A stretch of DNA of 64,000 bases. Origin: Entamoeba invadens IP1. Lineage: Eukaryota > Evosea > Mastigamoebida > Endamoebidae. Made by a program: the position numbers and the translations under genes. Positions 38,976-46,139 of this stretch are shown here, one piece after another; position 1 is the stretch's first letter; the number at the start of each line of letters is the position of its first letter. The notes beneath the pieces are model-generated. The model was not told the origin of the DNA. It was given only the letters and a program-made list of their open reading frames with translations, and ran no database searches. The DNA is taken from NCBI RefSeq assembly GCF_000330505.1, contig NW_004443692.1:109911-173910 (forward strand), read 5' to 3'.

Positions 38976-41051
38976 CTACTTTCGATTCTTTATCTTGGTG
39001 TCTTGGTTTTTTAAGCTGTTACATTTTTCCACACAATCTACCATTTTCCTTGGACAAATTCCTGTATATTGCTGTCTGCGTGGGTCTTTTAAATTAGTAC
39101 TAAAAGAACTTTGTCTTGAAACACTTGAAACTCTAGACGCAACAGTTGTTGTCATGGTTTCCAAAGTCGTATCATGTGTTTCATTTGTCGATTGTTGACT
39201 TATTTCTTTCGTCGTTGGTTGTTCTCGGCAATGTCCAATAAAAGAATAAAACCTGTTTCTCACAAATTCATTTCTTTTAATCAGTGGAACAACTTCATCC
39301 AAGTTATTATGAATATCATTGTGACTCGTTGGTTGTTGTTCTTTGTCGTCGATTTTGATAACCTTTTCATGAGTAGTGTTTTTATAAGAACTATCAATAA
39401 GAATATCTCTCGCAAAGGCAGTAGTTGGAATAGGATATATTGATCTTTCTGAACAGTATTTAATCATGTGAATGCACGGAATACGGTCAATATTAAAAAT
39501 GGTACAACAACATCTTGATTCGGAGCAATCTCCATTCAATGGTGGAGCTACTGTTGTGTTGATGTTTCTATATAATTTACACATTTTATTCACTACTATA
39601 GCGGGGAGTAAAGGAAGTATGTTTGGCGGAATTAACAATTCTGCAGTTTGTGTATCAAGTATCAAATCTTGTCTTCCATTCAAGTCGAACCTTCTGCTAT
39701 CAGTGACAATTGTCGTGGCTATTTCAACGAGTGAAGCAATCTTATTTCCTATTTTTTGTTTGAAATTTCCAAAATACCCTTCTATTCTGTTTGTAGTTTG
39801 TGTCTGTGTGTTCATCAAAACAACTGAAGGAAGCCAAGAATCTCTTTGCTCGATTAAATTTGTAATAACTTGGATTTTATCACTTTTTGTTATTTTAACT
39901 ATTTTTTCAGTCTTTCTCAGTTCTTTGATTTCTTCCAAAGTTTCCAGATAAAACACCGCTTCATCATTTGTAAGGTCACCTCCAAGTTCTTTTGACTCTT
40001 CAAACATTTGTTGTGCTTCTTCCTTCTGAGCATCGGTTAAATTGTATCCACTCATATAAATTAATCTATTTATAAAGTCGACTTCGGTTATTTTTCCATG
40101 AATCATTTCATCAAAATCAGAAACAATTGGAGACGTCTTTCCGAATGATATTTGGAGATCTCTGTGTATATGTCGAACACAGTGAAACAATTTAGAGAAT
40201 GGGAAAACAATCTTGATTGCTTTCATTTGTGAAATACAACGATCACAAAAAACAATTTTAAAAACAATTTTTTTGTTTTTCAAAAAATTAAAAAGGTCAA
40301 CAAATGAAGATGTAATTCTATTTCTCATTATAGCGAAAAATAAAATATGGGTGTTCCATTGATCCGAGAAATTTCCAACAACAAGTGGAAAATTAAAATG
40401 ATTGGTTGTAGCAGTATCATCGATATATATTATTTCTGGTGTATGATTAACATGTTTTGTGTTAAGTATAAAGCATGCTTCAAATTGTCCACTTGAATTT
40501 TTAATTATACGAGTGGAAAAATCATTCAAATCATCACAATAAATGGTCAATTTTTTGGCTTCTTCGGTGTTTCTAATATCGTAAACATCTCGAGTAATTT
40601 TTCTGATACGTTTAGTGTTAACTGAAAGTCCCATTTGTGAACAAATTTGGGCAGGCCTCATTCCACATTTGGCGTATGTATACACTTCATCAATTTGTTC
40701 TTTTGTAAAAGTATACTGAATATTACTTGGAAGGAATTCAAAATTATGGTTGTGTTTTCCAATAAAAATAATTTCACATGCAATTTTATTGTCTTTTTGG
40801 AATTTGATATTGACAGAACACTTACACTTTGTTGAATAACACCCAAAGTATTGAATATGTTTGTTGACATCAGTGTGTTTTGCTTTAAACAAAGAATATT
40901 GAACACCACCGGCGCTGATGAGAGATGACTCCTTCATTTGTTCAGTGACAGTGTTAATCACAAATTTTGTTTTGCAAATATTATCAATAATTTGTGGTGG
41001 TGTGTCAATACCTTCAACACCTCTTATTTCATGTTTGATTAAAGGAATCAT
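38976..41051 (-). CDS. MULE transposase
   Basis: A 691-aa intact ORF inside the element. The N-terminal part has a FLYWCH/WRKY-like zinc region (QYFGCYSTKCKCSVNIKFQ...GKHNHNF). The MULE catalytic core runs from about 205: IYIDDTATTNHFNFPLVVG supplies the first Asp and KIVFCDRCISQMKAIKIVFP (about 272) the second. FHCVRHIHRDL gives the family C..H motif, and the catalytic Glu lies further on. A SWIM zinc finger follows at about 517 (CCCTIFNIDRIPCIHMIKYC). It cuts and moves the element by binding the inverted repeats. No stops or frameshifts, so probably active or only recently silent. Confidence 0.93.
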   Translation of the reverse strand: MIPLIKHEIRGVEGIDTPPQIIDNICKTKFVINTVTEQMKESSLISAGGVQYSLFKAKHTDVNKHIQYFGCYSTKCKCSVNIKFQKDNKIACEIIFIGKHNHNFEFLPSNIQYTFTKEQIDEVYTYAKCGMRPAQICSQMGLSVNTKRIRKITRDVYDIRNTEEAKKLTIYCDDLNDFSTRIIKNSSGQFEACFILNTKHVNHTPEIIYIDDTATTNHFNFPLVVGNFSDQWNTHILFFAIMRNRITSSFVDLFNFLKNKKIVFKIVFCDRCISQMKAIKIVFPFSKLFHCVRHIHRDLQISFGKTSPIVSDFDEMIHGKITEVDFINRLIYMSGYNLTDAQKEEAQQMFEESKELGGDLTNDEAVFYLETLEEIKELRKTEKIVKITKSDKIQVITNLIEQRDSWLPSVVLMNTQTQTTNRIEGYFGNFKQKIGNKIASLVEIATTIVTDSRRFDLNGRQDLILDTQTAELLIPPNILPLLPAIVVNKMCKLYRNINTTVAPPLNGDCSESRCCCTIFNIDRIPCIHMIKYCSERSIYPIPTTAFARDILIDSSYKNTTHEKVIKIDDKEQQPTSHNDIHNNLDEVVPLIKRNEFVRNRFYSFIGHCREQPTTKEISQQSTNETHDTTLETMTTTVASRVSSVSRQSSFSTNLKDPRRQQYTGICPRKMVDCVEKCNSLKNQDTKIKNRK

Positions 41052-41230: not shown

Positions 41231-41472
41231 GAATAAACAAATATAAAAAATTTTAATGCCAAAATTACACATTTTTGTAATTTTATATTATCAGTTATTA
41301 ATGTTGTTTTAATAATTAAGATTATTTTAATTTTAATGTTTTTTCAATCATTTTAATAATTTGTTATTTTTGAATTATTAATGAACAATTGTATAACCAT
41401 TACACAATAAAATAAACACTTTCAAGTTATAAAAAATAAACACAGAAACAGATTTTATTTAAAAATATAAGT

Positions 41473-41550
41473 AGTAGTATATAAATCGTGCTGATTTCGT
41501 GCACCCTTTGGGAACACTCAATCTTCACGATTTCGTCGCTTCGCTCCGTT
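41473..41550 (+). repeat. left terminal inverted repeat of PolB element
   Basis: 78 bp matching the reverse complement of 45904-45980 with a single 1-bp indel. It contains an internal dyad, AAATCGTG near its outer edge and CACGATTT near its inner edge. Looser similarity continues inward through AGGGTTATTATTTT and AAAGTGAT. Confidence 0.92.
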
Positions 41551-41615
41551 TTTTATGTTTAATTATTATAGGGTTATTATTTTAAAGTGATTATATAATT
41601 TTTTGTAAATCTAAA

Positions 41616-41933
41616 ATGACAACTACCATGGGACGTATTATTAAAGCTATTAAAAAGAAATGTGTTCATATTACAGAATTAAATAATCTCGAAGTTGATT
41701 TATACTATAGAGTTGAATCTAAAGAGTTATTTCAAATTAAGGACGACACTGTCAAATTAATCAAACCTAGAGTTAGTAAATATAGTGACGATTGGGTTAG
41801 ATATAGTATCAAAGATAAAAATCATAAAGGAATGACATTTAGTAATAAACCACTAAGGAAATATCATGTTGATAAATTTAAATCAGAATCTGAATGTAAA
41901 GATATAGATGAATTTTTAGAACAATTCATATAA
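41616..41933 (+). CDS. 105-aa ORF of the PolB element, unknown
   Basis: A small intact protein starting 66 bp inside the core repeat (MTTTMGRIIKAIKKKCVHITE). It has mixed beta/helix composition (YSDDWVRYSIKDKNHKGMTF), is basic at the start and acidic at the end, and has no membrane segment. No family is recognised. In protein-primed systems a small neighbouring gene can encode a terminal protein or DNA-binding factor, but nothing in the sequence proves this. It is open although the partner polymerase is broken. Confidence 0.6.
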   Translation: MTTTMGRIIKAIKKKCVHITELNNLEVDLYYRVESKELFQIKDDTVKLIKPRVSKYSDDWVRYSIKDKNHKGMTFSNKPLRKYHVDKFKSESECKDIDEFLEQFI

Positions 41934-42138
41934 ATTCTCATAATATTTTATATATTTTTAGTATTTCTCAGAGGTTATCAGATGTTGTCATACTTTCTTA
42001 AATTATTTCAAATTGATTATTTTTATTTTATTTTTATAAAATAATCTCAAATGATTTCAAACCAAAAAATAAGACTAATATATGCTGGGAACATATAAAA
42101 GTCTATTAAATAATTGGTTACGAATAAGTTGTCTTCAT

Positions 42139-45100
42139 TTAGAATTGGATTTTTCTAGTAAAGTTCTCTCTTGTTTTAATATCAAATGACTTACTAAAAT
42201 CGAAACTAGGTTTTAATTCTTGTAAGTTAAACGTATAAGATTCTCCTGCGTAGAGTTTCTTATATAATTCAATTGGATTTTCGTTATTTTCCAATAAATT
42301 GTTTCGAATACCTTTCATTCTCATATGTAAAGCATGTTTTTGTTTATCGTTTGTTAATACATCTATATAAGCTTTCTTACCTAAGAATATACATTCCCAG
42401 ATAATTCATCAAAATCTGGATGGAATTGTTCTAATTCACCTCCTCTTAATGTTTTACCATATATTTCTTTATATTTTTGTTCTAATAGTTCCATCTTATT
42501 TTTGTTTATATGCACTGAATCAGTATCTTAATAATATATATCTATATTTAAATCTTCTGCTAAACACATTACTTCATTCATTATTCTCTTACTCATACTT
42601 AATATTTGTACACCAATGAGATTTGGAACATAGAAGTCATCAAATGGTTTATTTGTTTCAAAACATCTATTATTATCTGATATGTCATACATAGATTTAA
42701 CTAATGTAAAGTTCTTTTTAAGATATCTATCTGAATCGCATTTTCCTTTATTAATGATATATTTGTAAACCAAGTCATTTTTAATTGGTTTTTGAATCGT
42801 TTTTCCATATGAATTATTCATCAATAATTTATAATTGTTTTGTAACGGATTACCTTCTTTTTTAAGTTGAGATCTTAAATTGTATATCTTTTCAATCTCG
42901 TTACTAAACACACTTGATTTACAACCAGTCCAATAATATATTCTAATAATATTAAACTCTATTTGTTGAAATTTAATCATATCTTCAAGCATAATATTAT
43001 CTACTCTCATTGTACAACATTCATTAACATTATGATTACCTTTTTTATCTTTCTTAGTTATAATTGGGAAGTGTAAATGTTTGTTAACCTTGGTTATTTC
43101 TATATATACAATAAATGCTGATATATAACGTTCATTTGTTGGTTCTAATTGTTGTTCTAACATTAAGTGGTTTAATATAGTTTTATTACAGGTTTCTTGT
43201 GGTATTACTATAGGTTTTCCAGTTGCTAGTTTTAGTCTATGTATAGCGCTAGGATATAACGAACATGCGTCATAATCATATAAATCTTTAGTAACATATT
43301 GTTTAGTATTATCTCTACACATATTTCTACCTTTATATACTTCACCCTGTATAAATTCTCTAACTTTCCCAGAATATTGCATTAAGTTTGTAATTTGTGT
43401 GTAAACATGTAACTTGAAATAGTGATTAGCTAAAGCAGATATACTAATAAAGTTGTCAACATCTATATTTAAACTTTTCAAATTATTATTTCGGAATTTA
43501 ATATGACCTTCTTTTAATATTCTAACGTCTTGACAACAGTAGAATTTACAATATAATTACATATCGAACTTGTCGTTATCCACTAAACAATTATTGATTT
43601 TAGATATATTCTCTTTAAATAAATTATATTGTTCTTTATTCCATTTTTGAGATTCATATTCAACAGCTTCTGAAATTATTCCAAAGTTATTTTGAATTCG
43701 TTCTATGGTGTAATAATTATAAGGATATAACTCTTTTTGAATATTAGATAAATCAAATATTTTAGGAAAATCTGATAACTTATTTGAAATCATTGAATAA
43801 CTATCTTTCAAAAAAATTTTTTTTTCGTGATAATTTAGTTTCATTTTCATAGTTTTTCCATCTTTCTTAATACATATCTCAATTCCATATTTTGCCAAGA
43901 AACACGAATCATATTTCAAATTATGAAAGTAAACAACTGAATTGTTATCTAAATCAGATAAGAAGTCTTCCACACATTCATTTCCATATTTACACGAAAT
44001 TTGAGATGAATTTCGTTTATAATAAGCAACACAATATGCTTTATGAATTCCTTGTGTGCTAGCTTCGAAATCAGCATAATAATAAGTATAGTTTTTGGAT
44101 TTCGATTTTTTATTGATTTTTTCCATTGTTATTGGTTTAACTTCGAAATCTAGATAATCTAATAATTCGATTGATTGTTTGACATAATCAGATAAATCTG
44201 ATTTTAAATGAAGCACATCACTAAGTGAATATGGTTTAAAACCATTATTATCTCTAATATTTAAAATAAGTTCTGATAATTTTATAGTAGATTTAGCTCC
44301 TGGATTGGTTAAATATGAAATTCCTTTCTTTCTTTGTTTATTAAACATAGATTCAATTGGTTTGTTGTGATCTAATGCCCATTTATTCAATTCAATTCAA
44401 TTCTTAAGATAAAAGGGAGTAATAGGAATATCAATATCTAAGAAATAATGATCACCTTTCATACTAACATCTCTAAATAAATACATACTAATTTCAGTAG
44501 CTTTTTCATTATCTGATCCTATATATTTCATTATTGTATTTGCATTAGATTGACGTTTTAATTCTTCACGTTTTATTTGAATTCTAATATTACATGATTT
44601 TGAAACTTCATCTATCAATTTAATTTTCTGATATCTTGAATAACAATGAATACAATATAAATCAATAATTTTCTCATCTATTTTAGCTTGTTGTAAAACA
44701 TATATTAAACAATTATTATTTAATTCATGTCTAATTTTGTTTTCAACACTAAGAGAATCAAATATTTGTGCTATTTTTAAATATTTAGAGAAACATTTAT
44801 ATTCTTCTGTATAATGATAAGCAAAAAATGCAGCACCATTATTTCGATATTCATTGATTTCTTTTTTATAATCATATTCTTCAGTTATTAATTCTGTAAT
44901 AAATAAAGGTTCTGGAACTTCATGTTGAACATAAAATGCAGAATCTGAACCGTTTTCAATTTAAGATTGATTATATAAACCAAGAGTTTCGTTAGAAATT
45001 GACTTTAGAAATTCATCTATATTTTCTTTAGAATTTAACATATAAGTCTTCCAAGTGGTATCAGTAAATCTATATTTATAAACTAAATTTGCTGTTGAAT

Positions 45101-45842
45101 CTAGTTTTTCAATTAATTGATTAAAAATCTGTCTAATCATACCAATTCATCTTAATTTTTCTTCAAATCCACAATTAAGATCAGCATGAATTATATTATT
45201 ATCTACGTCATATCTTACACCTTCTATTTTATATTAATTATCATTTATTGATCGTTTGTATGGCTGATATTCATCATAAATTTGATCTCTGTTTTCATCT
45301 TCATCTATTTGTTCAATATTATTGTTTAAACTCCATTCTAAATTATTTTTGATATTATCATAATTATTAATCATGTATTCGTTTTCTCTTTTATTCTTAA
45401 GTTGTTCATTAAGATAATTATAACATTCTTGAGATATTGCTTCATCATCTATTTCGGTATTATGTTTTAAACTCCATTCTAAATTCTTTTTATTAAGTTT
45501 TTTTTCATAATCTAAATCTTTAATTAATGTTGCTTTTTTATTAATTAATCCAAAAGTTTGTTTATCAATTTTATTTAATTTATCAAACACAATTCTTAAA
45601 AATTGTTGCGCTAAAGGCGCCGCTACGTGTTGTTCTAATTTTTCTTTATAATCAAGATAAACATTTCTGGATTCAATATTCATTTTCAATAATTCTTTTC
45701 TACATTCTCTATTTAAAATTTTAGTAGATGCTGCTTTAATAATTCCATCTTTAATTCTAAAACAATCAAAAATTTCTTCTTCGGAATAAGTTTTAATAAA
45801 CTTGTGAAAATTCATTTTCAAGTATTCTTGTGTAGTGCTCAT
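42139..45842 (-). pseudogene. protein-primed family B DNA polymerase, interrupted
   Basis: One frame of about 1230 codons carries the pPolB motifs in order. These are Exo I DFEAS (about 44061-44075), Exo II HNLKYD (about 43910), Exo III YCCQD (about 43530), motif A DACSLYPS (about 43260), motif B NNSYGK (about 42810) and motif C DTDSVH (42516-42527). It is broken by in-frame stops at 45234 TAA, 45147 TGA, 44961 TAA, 44397 TGA, 43557 TAA and 42528 TAA, plus one frameshift near 42385. The downstream C-terminus (FLGKKAYID..., SFDFSKSFDIK) is still recognisable. About 550 residues precede the exonuclease domain, including NNCLIYVLQQ and HYFLDIDI blocks. Unless recoded, it cannot make a full enzyme. 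Confidence 0.9.
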
Positions 45843-45903
45843 TTAGGATAAAAAAATAAAATTATCACTTTGAAATAATAACTAAAAAATAATAACCCTG
45901 AAT

Positions 45904-45980
45904 AACGGAGCGAAGCGACGAATCGTGAAGATTGAGTGTTCCCAAAGGGTGCACGAAATCAGCACGATTTATATACTACT
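45904..45980 (-). repeat. right terminal inverted repeat of PolB element
   Basis: 77-bp partner of the left repeat. The polymerase ATG (45842) lies about 60 bp inside, so the repeat probably serves as its promoter. Confidence 0.92.
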
Positions 45981-46139
45981 AAGTATAACTTTATAATTAT
46001 AATTAAATTGAGATTGAAACAAATTCAATTCCAAATAATTCATTTCTGCATATTCAAATCCTTTTTATTTGTACCACAACTGGAATTGAAATTTTGTGTA
46101 TTTATACCAAATTATTATTTCCATAATAAACGTTAAGAA

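What the first reader, a model, noticed from the sequence alone, without database searches (positions are those of the whole stretch)
41473..45980. Minimal protein-primed replicon-like element: inverted repeats, one PolB, one small ORF
Seen: 78-bp near-identical terminal inverted repeats, two convergent genes, and a full set of Exo and Pol motifs of protein-primed PolB. There is no integrase, packaging ATPase, protease or capsid gene in 4.5 kb. Known: Mavericks/Polintons have this polymerase but are 15-20 kb with integrase, and linear plasmids have similar minimal content. Inference: either an internally deleted Maverick mobilised in trans, or a separate linear-plasmid-like family captured in the nucleus.
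Basis: partly seen in the sequence, partly recalled or inferred. Interest (0 to 1): 0.9.

Follow-up and report, generated by a model that had tools for sequence, protein, structure and literature searches.

The report
Small Maverick relative keeping only polymerase
In the genome of the amoeba Entamoeba invadens this is one decayed copy of an old family of small mobile elements that descend from virus-like Maverick transposons, kept their own DNA polymerase and ends, and seem to borrow the integration enzyme of full-size Mavericks.

Summary
The element is real: 41473-45980, 4508 bp, ends AGTAGT...ACTACT, outer 78 bp of the inverted repeats identical but for one inserted base, 4-bp target duplication AAGT. 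It holds a 105-aa ORF and a convergent protein-primed PolB. The PolB here is dead (six in-frame stops, a frame loss). The host is Entamoeba invadens. The genome holds 17 loci with this repeat (PolB in 13, small ORF in 13); no integrase or ATPase match falls in them. A 12.2-kb Maverick in the same genome (intact PolB, integrase candidate, ATPase) ends in the same 14 bp and also has a 4-bp duplication. PolB places the small elements in one clade, sister to these Mavericks. A second small family (C213, 4567 bp) has diverged to dS about 1.2 with dN/dS 0.24. Variants shared among copies are less often amino-acid-changing than private ones (P 6e-7). So this looks like an old, integrase-less Maverick lineage whose PolB was selected while it spread, rather than a one-off deletion or a captured plasmid. 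Two copies at different sites share three PolB stops, so broken copies probably moved too, helped in trans. Integration by the Maverick integrase and a replicating free form are inferred.

The parts
41469..41472 (.). left 4-bp target site duplication, AAGT
   Evidence: of the lengths 2-8 only 4 matches exactly
41473..41604 (+). left terminal inverted repeat, begins AGTAGTATATAAATC
   Evidence: 25 matches in the genome
41616..41933 (+). 105-aa ORF, intact here; sequence present in 13 of 17 loci of the family; function unknown
42139..45842 (-). [quoted passage not shown] annotated in the published genome as EIN_176410
42528..43382 (-). open PolB piece with polymerase motifs A and B
43557..44348 (-). 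open PolB piece with motifs Exo I and Exo II
45234..45842 (-). open N-terminal PolB piece (expected terminal-protein region; inference, no Pfam hit)
   Evidence: domain order of polinton pPolB from passages of PMC11071308
45851..45980 (-). right terminal inverted repeat, ends ACTACT
45981..45984 (.). right 4-bp target site duplication, AAGT

Best explanation
It is a dead copy of an old, integrase-less lineage of Maverick-derived elements that kept only a replication module: two terminal repeats as origins, one large PolB that should carry its own priming protein in the N-terminal part, and a 105-aa accessory protein. The likely cycle is: PolB is expressed; linear DNA copies are made from the ends by protein priming; and the integrase of a co-resident Maverick recognises the shared AGTAGTATATAAAT end and inserts the copy with a 4-bp duplication. 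SHOWN by sequence: architecture, copy number, shared ends and duplication length, PolB ancestry, excess of silent change in PolB. SUGGESTED: movement of a progenitor whose PolB was already broken. INFERRED: protein priming, a free linear form, use of the Maverick integrase, the role of the 105-aa protein.
For: 17 loci with the repeat; none of the 26 integrase or 17 ATPase matches lies in them. The C134 Maverick (12,207 bp; intact 1265-aa PolB, integrase candidate, ATPase) shares the terminal 14 bp and a 4-bp duplication. Exact 4-bp duplications flank 10 of 16 elements with these ends (4 of 7 minis, 6 of 9 others); chance P about 8e-19 if independent. The mini clade, including C213 and C114, has local support 1.000 and is sister to Mavericks of this genome. 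dN/dS 0.24 (median of 12 pairs) between minis and C213 at dS 1.17. Shared versus private variants: N/S 0.27 versus 0.61 of neutral opportunity, P 5.7e-7; P 1.1e-5 without C23b. The 17 catalytic positions examined, including vOTU-like Cys and His, are kept in most of the ten fuller minis and C213.
Against: No intact mini PolB was seen: the ten fuller minis have 4-15 stops each, C213 one. PolB of five Mavericks is more constrained by the same measure (shared 0.08, private 0.33) than that of the minis (0.27, 0.61), so mini PolB may have been under weaker selection. The 105-aa ORF shows no shared/private difference among 10 copies (P 0.79); selection on it rests on the comparison with C213. Of 17 elements, C104, C204 and C213:70430 match in 2, 1 and 1 of 4 duplication bases, and C153, C63, C201 and C213:87700 in 3. 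Shared stops in C23a and C23b argue that PolB is not always needed in cis. dS near 1.2 is close to saturation and the estimator is crude. A Maverick of the same subfamily that was lost or withheld as N could have carried the selected PolB.
Confidence: 0.62

Rival explanations
1. Passive internal-deletion derivative: a Maverick lost its middle, the ends sufficed for mobilisation in trans, and PolB is left-over sequence without a role.
For: Eight shorter elements pair the same 14-bp ends; of those read whole, C186:454324-458141 has only a 5' PolB piece plus an ATPase, and C28 is 1.1 kb. C23a and C23b seem to come from a progenitor with PolB stops. Mini PolB is less constrained than Maverick PolB.
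Against: Excess of silent change among variants shared by copies; two subfamilies of the same size and layout; a gene not found in the related Maverick.
Confidence: 0.2
2. Hidden masters: full-length Mavericks of the same subfamily, now lost or unassembled, carried the selected PolB and threw off 4.5-kb derivatives.
For: Only one genome was available; some stretches read N; the mini PolBs examined are all decayed.
Against: None of 17 mini-type loci holds an integrase match. C213 and the main family would need matching deletions and the same added ORF.
Confidence: 0.14
3. Separate linear plasmid family captured in the nucleus, unrelated to Mavericks.
For: Minimal content (PolB, one ORF, inverted repeats) looks like linear plasmids.
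Against: PolB is sister to Mavericks of the same genome; ends match the commonest vertebrate Maverick end motif (AGT)2//(ACT)2 (PMC8097293, passages) and the resident Maverick.
Confidence: 0.03

Closest known systems
Maverick/Polinton of Entamoeba invadens (a 16,504-bp element is cited in PMC3511435 from its reference 6, Kapitonov and Jurka 2006; passages read)
   Same: Protein-primed PolB, terminal inverted repeats, AGTAGT end motif; PolB 67-71% identical in DNA to the 12.2-kb C134 Maverick
   Different: 4.5 kb, no integrase or ATPase match, a 105-aa ORF not found in C134, 4-bp duplication (C134 too) rather than the 6 bp of vertebrate Mavericks
Non-autonomous DNA transposons moved in trans (general kind; recalled)
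   Same: Keep the ends, lack the enzyme that integrates them
   Different: These keep a large polymerase gene that shows selection
Transpovirons (PMC11071308, passages)
   Same: Small linear element derived from a polinton-like virus by loss of the structural module
   Different: Transpoviron pPolB lacks the exonuclease and has a helicase; here Exo motifs are present and copies sit in the nuclear genome
Cytoplasmic and mitochondrial linear plasmids with pPolB (PMC11071308, passages)
   Same: PolB between inverted repeats, little else
   Different: PolB ancestry lies with resident Mavericks; chromosomal copies with target duplications
Family B2 polymerases of E. histolytica, EhDNApolB2 (PMC3511435, passages)
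   Same: Maverick-type PolB; that paper reports no integrase, protease or ATPase found in that genome
   Different: PolB 44% identical to the C134 PolB over the searched region (P0057); ends unknown

Membership tests
Maverick/Polinton | Protein-primed family B polymerase with Exo and Pol motifs | tested here: met
   the copy in the window is broken
Maverick/Polinton | Retrovirus-type integrase | tested here: not met
   none of 26 integrase matches in the genome lies in the 17 mini loci
Maverick/Polinton | Packaging ATPase | tested here: not met
   none of 17 ATPase matches lies in the 17 mini loci
Maverick/Polinton | Capsid proteins and protease | not tested
   no capsid or protease query was run; 205 bp lie between the two genes
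Maverick/Polinton | Terminal inverted repeats with AGTAGT end | tested here: met
   motif from PMC8097293 (passages)
Maverick/Polinton | 6-bp target duplication | tested here: not met
   4 bp exact in 4 of 7 minis and in C134; no exact match longer than 4 with the end at AGTAG
Non-autonomous Maverick derivative | Shares ends and duplication length with an integrase-bearing element | tested here: met
   C134
Non-autonomous Maverick derivative | Moved by that element's integrase | not testable with these tools
   needs an integration assay
Linear plasmid with pPolB | PolB ancestry among linear plasmids | tested here: inconclusive
   sister to resident Mavericks, which speaks against it, but named plasmid polymerases were not in the tree
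Linear plasmid with pPolB | Extrachromosomal linear DNA | not testable with these tools
   only assembled chromosomal copies seen
Transpoviron | pPolB without exonuclease, fused to a helicase | tested here: not met
   Exo residues present

The most novel reading that the evidence does not exclude
A long-lived replicon-only satellite of Mavericks: it replicates itself with its own self-priming polymerase but depends on the integrase (and perhaps capsid) of full-size Mavericks in the same nucleus, a nuclear counterpart of transpovirons and virus satellites. The orphan Maverick-type polymerases of E. histolytica could be the same kind of element.
Probability: 0.45. Interest if true: 0.72.

Novelty: new variant of a known kind. 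Interest (0 to 1): 0.6.

Why it matters
Mavericks are thought to link viruses, transposons and linear plasmids. A lineage that shed integrase and ATPase but kept a selected polymerase would show a Maverick turning into a replication-only element that lives off its relatives. It gives a concrete family in which to ask whether Maverick polymerase works in cis or in trans, whether the integrase acts on any DNA with the right end, and whether orphan PolB genes in other amoebae are such elements. The shared 4-bp duplication also marks an unusual Maverick integrase.

Tried and rejected
Searching the 105-aa ORF in 5.8 billion proteins gave 2 candidates and none with E <= 1. Pfam, PHROGs (best E 0.15) and a profile search of solved structures (best E 0.57) gave nothing useful, and a profile comparison with the 115-aa ORF of C186:454324 gave probability 0.4%. 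Viral contigs with a PolB alignment: 67 pattern matches, none confirmed. A 6-bp duplication reading was tested and dropped: the window copy alone fits TAAGTA, 1 of the 10 exact cases (by eye). C102 (a 105-aa relative beside a PolB tail that, of ten queries, fits E. histolytica P0057 best, 37%) is too fragmentary to use. C114 is a fragment with 12 stops in 393 codons, so its place in the tree is unreliable. The 543-aa integrase candidate has no Pfam hit itself. It rests on acidic residues D218, D300 and D336, picked by me among the invariant columns of ten sequences (E302 and D344 are invariant too), on weak rve hits in 4 of 7 relatives scanned, all below cut-off, and on the UniRef name of P0121. 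Structure prediction of the 105-aa protein could not be run.

Dropped before counts: and 75 codons differing at more than one base from the commonest codon, columns with too few copies, columns whose commonest codon is a stop, and shared variants lacking two copies on each side; the PolB test used ten minis and left out C189a, C189b, C7, C114 and C213. The shared/private P values treat variants as independent. In the tree 17 loci and 34 of the 120 listed homologues (of 2999 found) were used; P0020, the window's own gene model, was left out. The genome searches score only their best candidates, so counts are lower bounds.
Full report
WHAT IS THERE. The window is G000:C23:109911-173910 of a 35-Mb genome. 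The host is Entamoeba invadens: protein EIN_176410 of E. invadens IP1 aligns along its whole 801 aa to 45140-42384 of the window, 87.05% of 919 columns, that is 800 of 801 residues with the rest gaps, as expected for a gene model of this very copy with stretches skipped. The element runs from 41473 to 45980 (4508 bp). Its ends read AGTAGTATATAAATC...; the outer 60 bp of both repeats are identical, the outer 78 bp differ by one inserted base, and similarity extends to about 150 bp at 86%. The flanking AAGT is duplicated. The 105-aa ORF (41616-41933, +) and PolB (42139-45842, -) converge. The PolB carries six in-frame stops (4 TAA, 2 TGA) and loses frame near 42.38 kb, so this copy is dead.

A FAMILY. 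The repeat matches 25 places, which make 17 loci: eight with both ends (C23:151383, C23:289936, C104, C148 with a cut right repeat, C153, C212, C65, C63) and nine with one end (C119, C137, C189 twice, C7, C166, C62, C179, C100). Six of the eight are 4.44-4.61 kb; C212 (5.6 kb) and C63 (6.2 kb) hold extra sequence. PolB sequence is in 13 of 17, the 105-aa ORF in 13 of 17. None of the 26 integrase matches or 17 ATPase matches lies in any of the 17.

THE RESIDENT MAVERICKS. C134:236401-248607 (12,207 bp) has an intact 1265-aa PolB, an integrase candidate, an ATPase (weak Pox_A32 hit of its relative, below cut-off) and a 347-aa protein, with repeats 97.9% alike and the duplication CAAA. The integrase candidate has invariant acidic residues D218, D300 and D336, with 35 residues between the last two, the third being D rather than E; four of seven relatives scanned match rve weakly, all below cut-off. 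PolB and integrase relatives also lie together at C11, C8, C83 and C136. A second, more distant set (C93, C37, C15, C109, C6) has integrase (33-36% identical), ATPase and PolB within about 10 kb. Eight shorter elements pair the 14-bp end in inverted orientation: C186:454324-458141 carries an ATPase and the 5' part of PolB between 100% identical repeats, and C28 is 1.1 kb.

ONE INTEGRATION SYSTEM. With the end set at AGTAG, an exact 4-bp duplication flanks 10 of 16 elements tested: 4 of 7 minis, the C134 Maverick, and 5 of 8 short elements. C153, C63, C201 and C213:87700 match in 3 of 4 bases, C104 in 2, C204 in 1; C213:70430 in 1. Chance of 10 in 16 is about 8e-19 under independence. Vertebrate Mavericks most often use the ends (AGT)2//(ACT)2, but with 6-bp duplications (PMC8097293, passages). 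That minis and a Maverick share both end and 4-bp duplication points to the same integrase; this is inference.

AGE AND SELECTION. In a PolB tree the ten fuller minis with C213 and C114 form one clade (local support 1.000), sister to the clade of C134, C11, C136, C8, C83 and EIN_417710 (1.000); the two join at 0.982, with metagenomic PolBs outside when rooted on the most distant ones. C213:70430-74996 (4567 bp, same layout, repeats 91.7% alike) is a second subfamily. Median dN/dS is 0.24 between minis and C213 (12 pairs, dS 1.17), 0.46 among minis (66 pairs) and 0.38 against C134 (12 pairs). Among ten minis, variants shared by two or more copies are 105 synonymous to 127 others, private ones 162 to 443, i.e. 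0.27 and 0.61 of the neutral opportunity (P 5.7e-7). Without C23b the figures are 0.26 and 0.56 (P 1.1e-5); without C23b and counting only variants shared by three or more, 0.16 and 0.56 (P 1.3e-6); a six-copy subset gives 0.25 and 0.43 (P 0.022). PolB was thus selected while the lineage spread, and copies decayed after insertion. The same count on five Mavericks gives 0.08 and 0.33, so their PolB was held more tightly. For the 105-aa ORF the test among copies shows nothing (P 0.79), while comparison with C213 gives dN/dS 0.17-0.39 in 12 pairs.

CIS OR TRANS. C23a and C23b sit at different sites with different duplications (AAGT, CCAT) yet share three stop columns (202, 293, 774) out of 6 and 5. 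Their progenitor was therefore probably already broken and was helped in trans. This is not proof: eight stop columns are shared by some pair of minis, 774 also occurs in C153, and five of the eight join copies other than this pair, so repeated mutation at the same codon, or gene conversion, can happen.

HOW IT PROBABLY WORKS. Polinton PolBs carry a terminal-protein domain and a vOTU protease domain in front of the exonuclease and polymerase (PMC11071308, passages). The mini PolBs align over columns 6-1258 of the 1265-aa C134 PolB in the best copies and keep a Cys and a His at vOTU-like motifs (motif assignment mine), besides the Exo and Pol residues. One protein and two ends could then suffice for end-primed replication, with integration supplied by a resident Maverick. 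A 2015 paper already suggested that integrated polinton-like viruses without an enzyme may use integrases of resident Polintons in trans (PMC4642659, passages); the present family would be a much smaller, polymerase-only case.

IN PRINT. Searches of the held library for E. invadens with Maverick or Polinton (20 of 137 listed), non-autonomous Polinton terms (19 papers, exact phrases, 0 papers), E. invadens transposable elements (15 papers), satellite and plasmid terms (15 of 20 listed) and duplication terms (10 papers) showed, by title and abstract start, no paper about such elements. Passages were read in ten papers. The 2008 Entamoeba repeat survey and the E. invadens genome paper contain neither 'Maverick' nor 'Polinton' in the main text. 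Kapitonov and Jurka 2006, Pritham 2007 and Repbase were not read here, so an entry there is possible.

Noticed in passing
window 38976-41051 (-): 691-aa MULE transposase ORF (Pfam MULE, E 4.1e-8) directly beside the element.
   Followed up: no
L079, L075 (C134:236401-248607): Maverick with a 4-bp target duplication and an integrase candidate whose third acidic residue is D; the vertebrate Mavericks read about have 6 bp.
   Followed up: partly
L090 (C28:112088-113192), L091 (C186:70335-71847), L081 (C186:454324-458141): Short elements with Maverick ends and 99-100% identical repeats, so probably recent; one carries an ATPase and the 5' part of PolB.
   Followed up: partly
window 42384-45140 (EIN_176410): The published gene model of this pseudogene seems to skip the stops by invented introns.
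   Followed up: yes
C36:186786 (L073), C186:396456 (L072): Relatives of the 105-aa ORF (38-42%) beside AGTAGTAT-like ends of a different element type.
   Followed up: partly
C102:77347-78607 (L074): A 105-aa relative convergent with a PolB tail that, of ten queries, fits E. histolytica P0057 best (37%); perhaps a third, older lineage.
   Followed up: partly
L080 (C180:320049-325227), L077 (C119): Other long ORFs, transposase-like by eye, inserted into members of the family.
   Followed up: no
proteins P0009 and P0123: A metagenomic PolB (62%) and integrase (30%) whose longest contigs are both 14,564 bp, so possibly one full-length relative.
   Followed up: no
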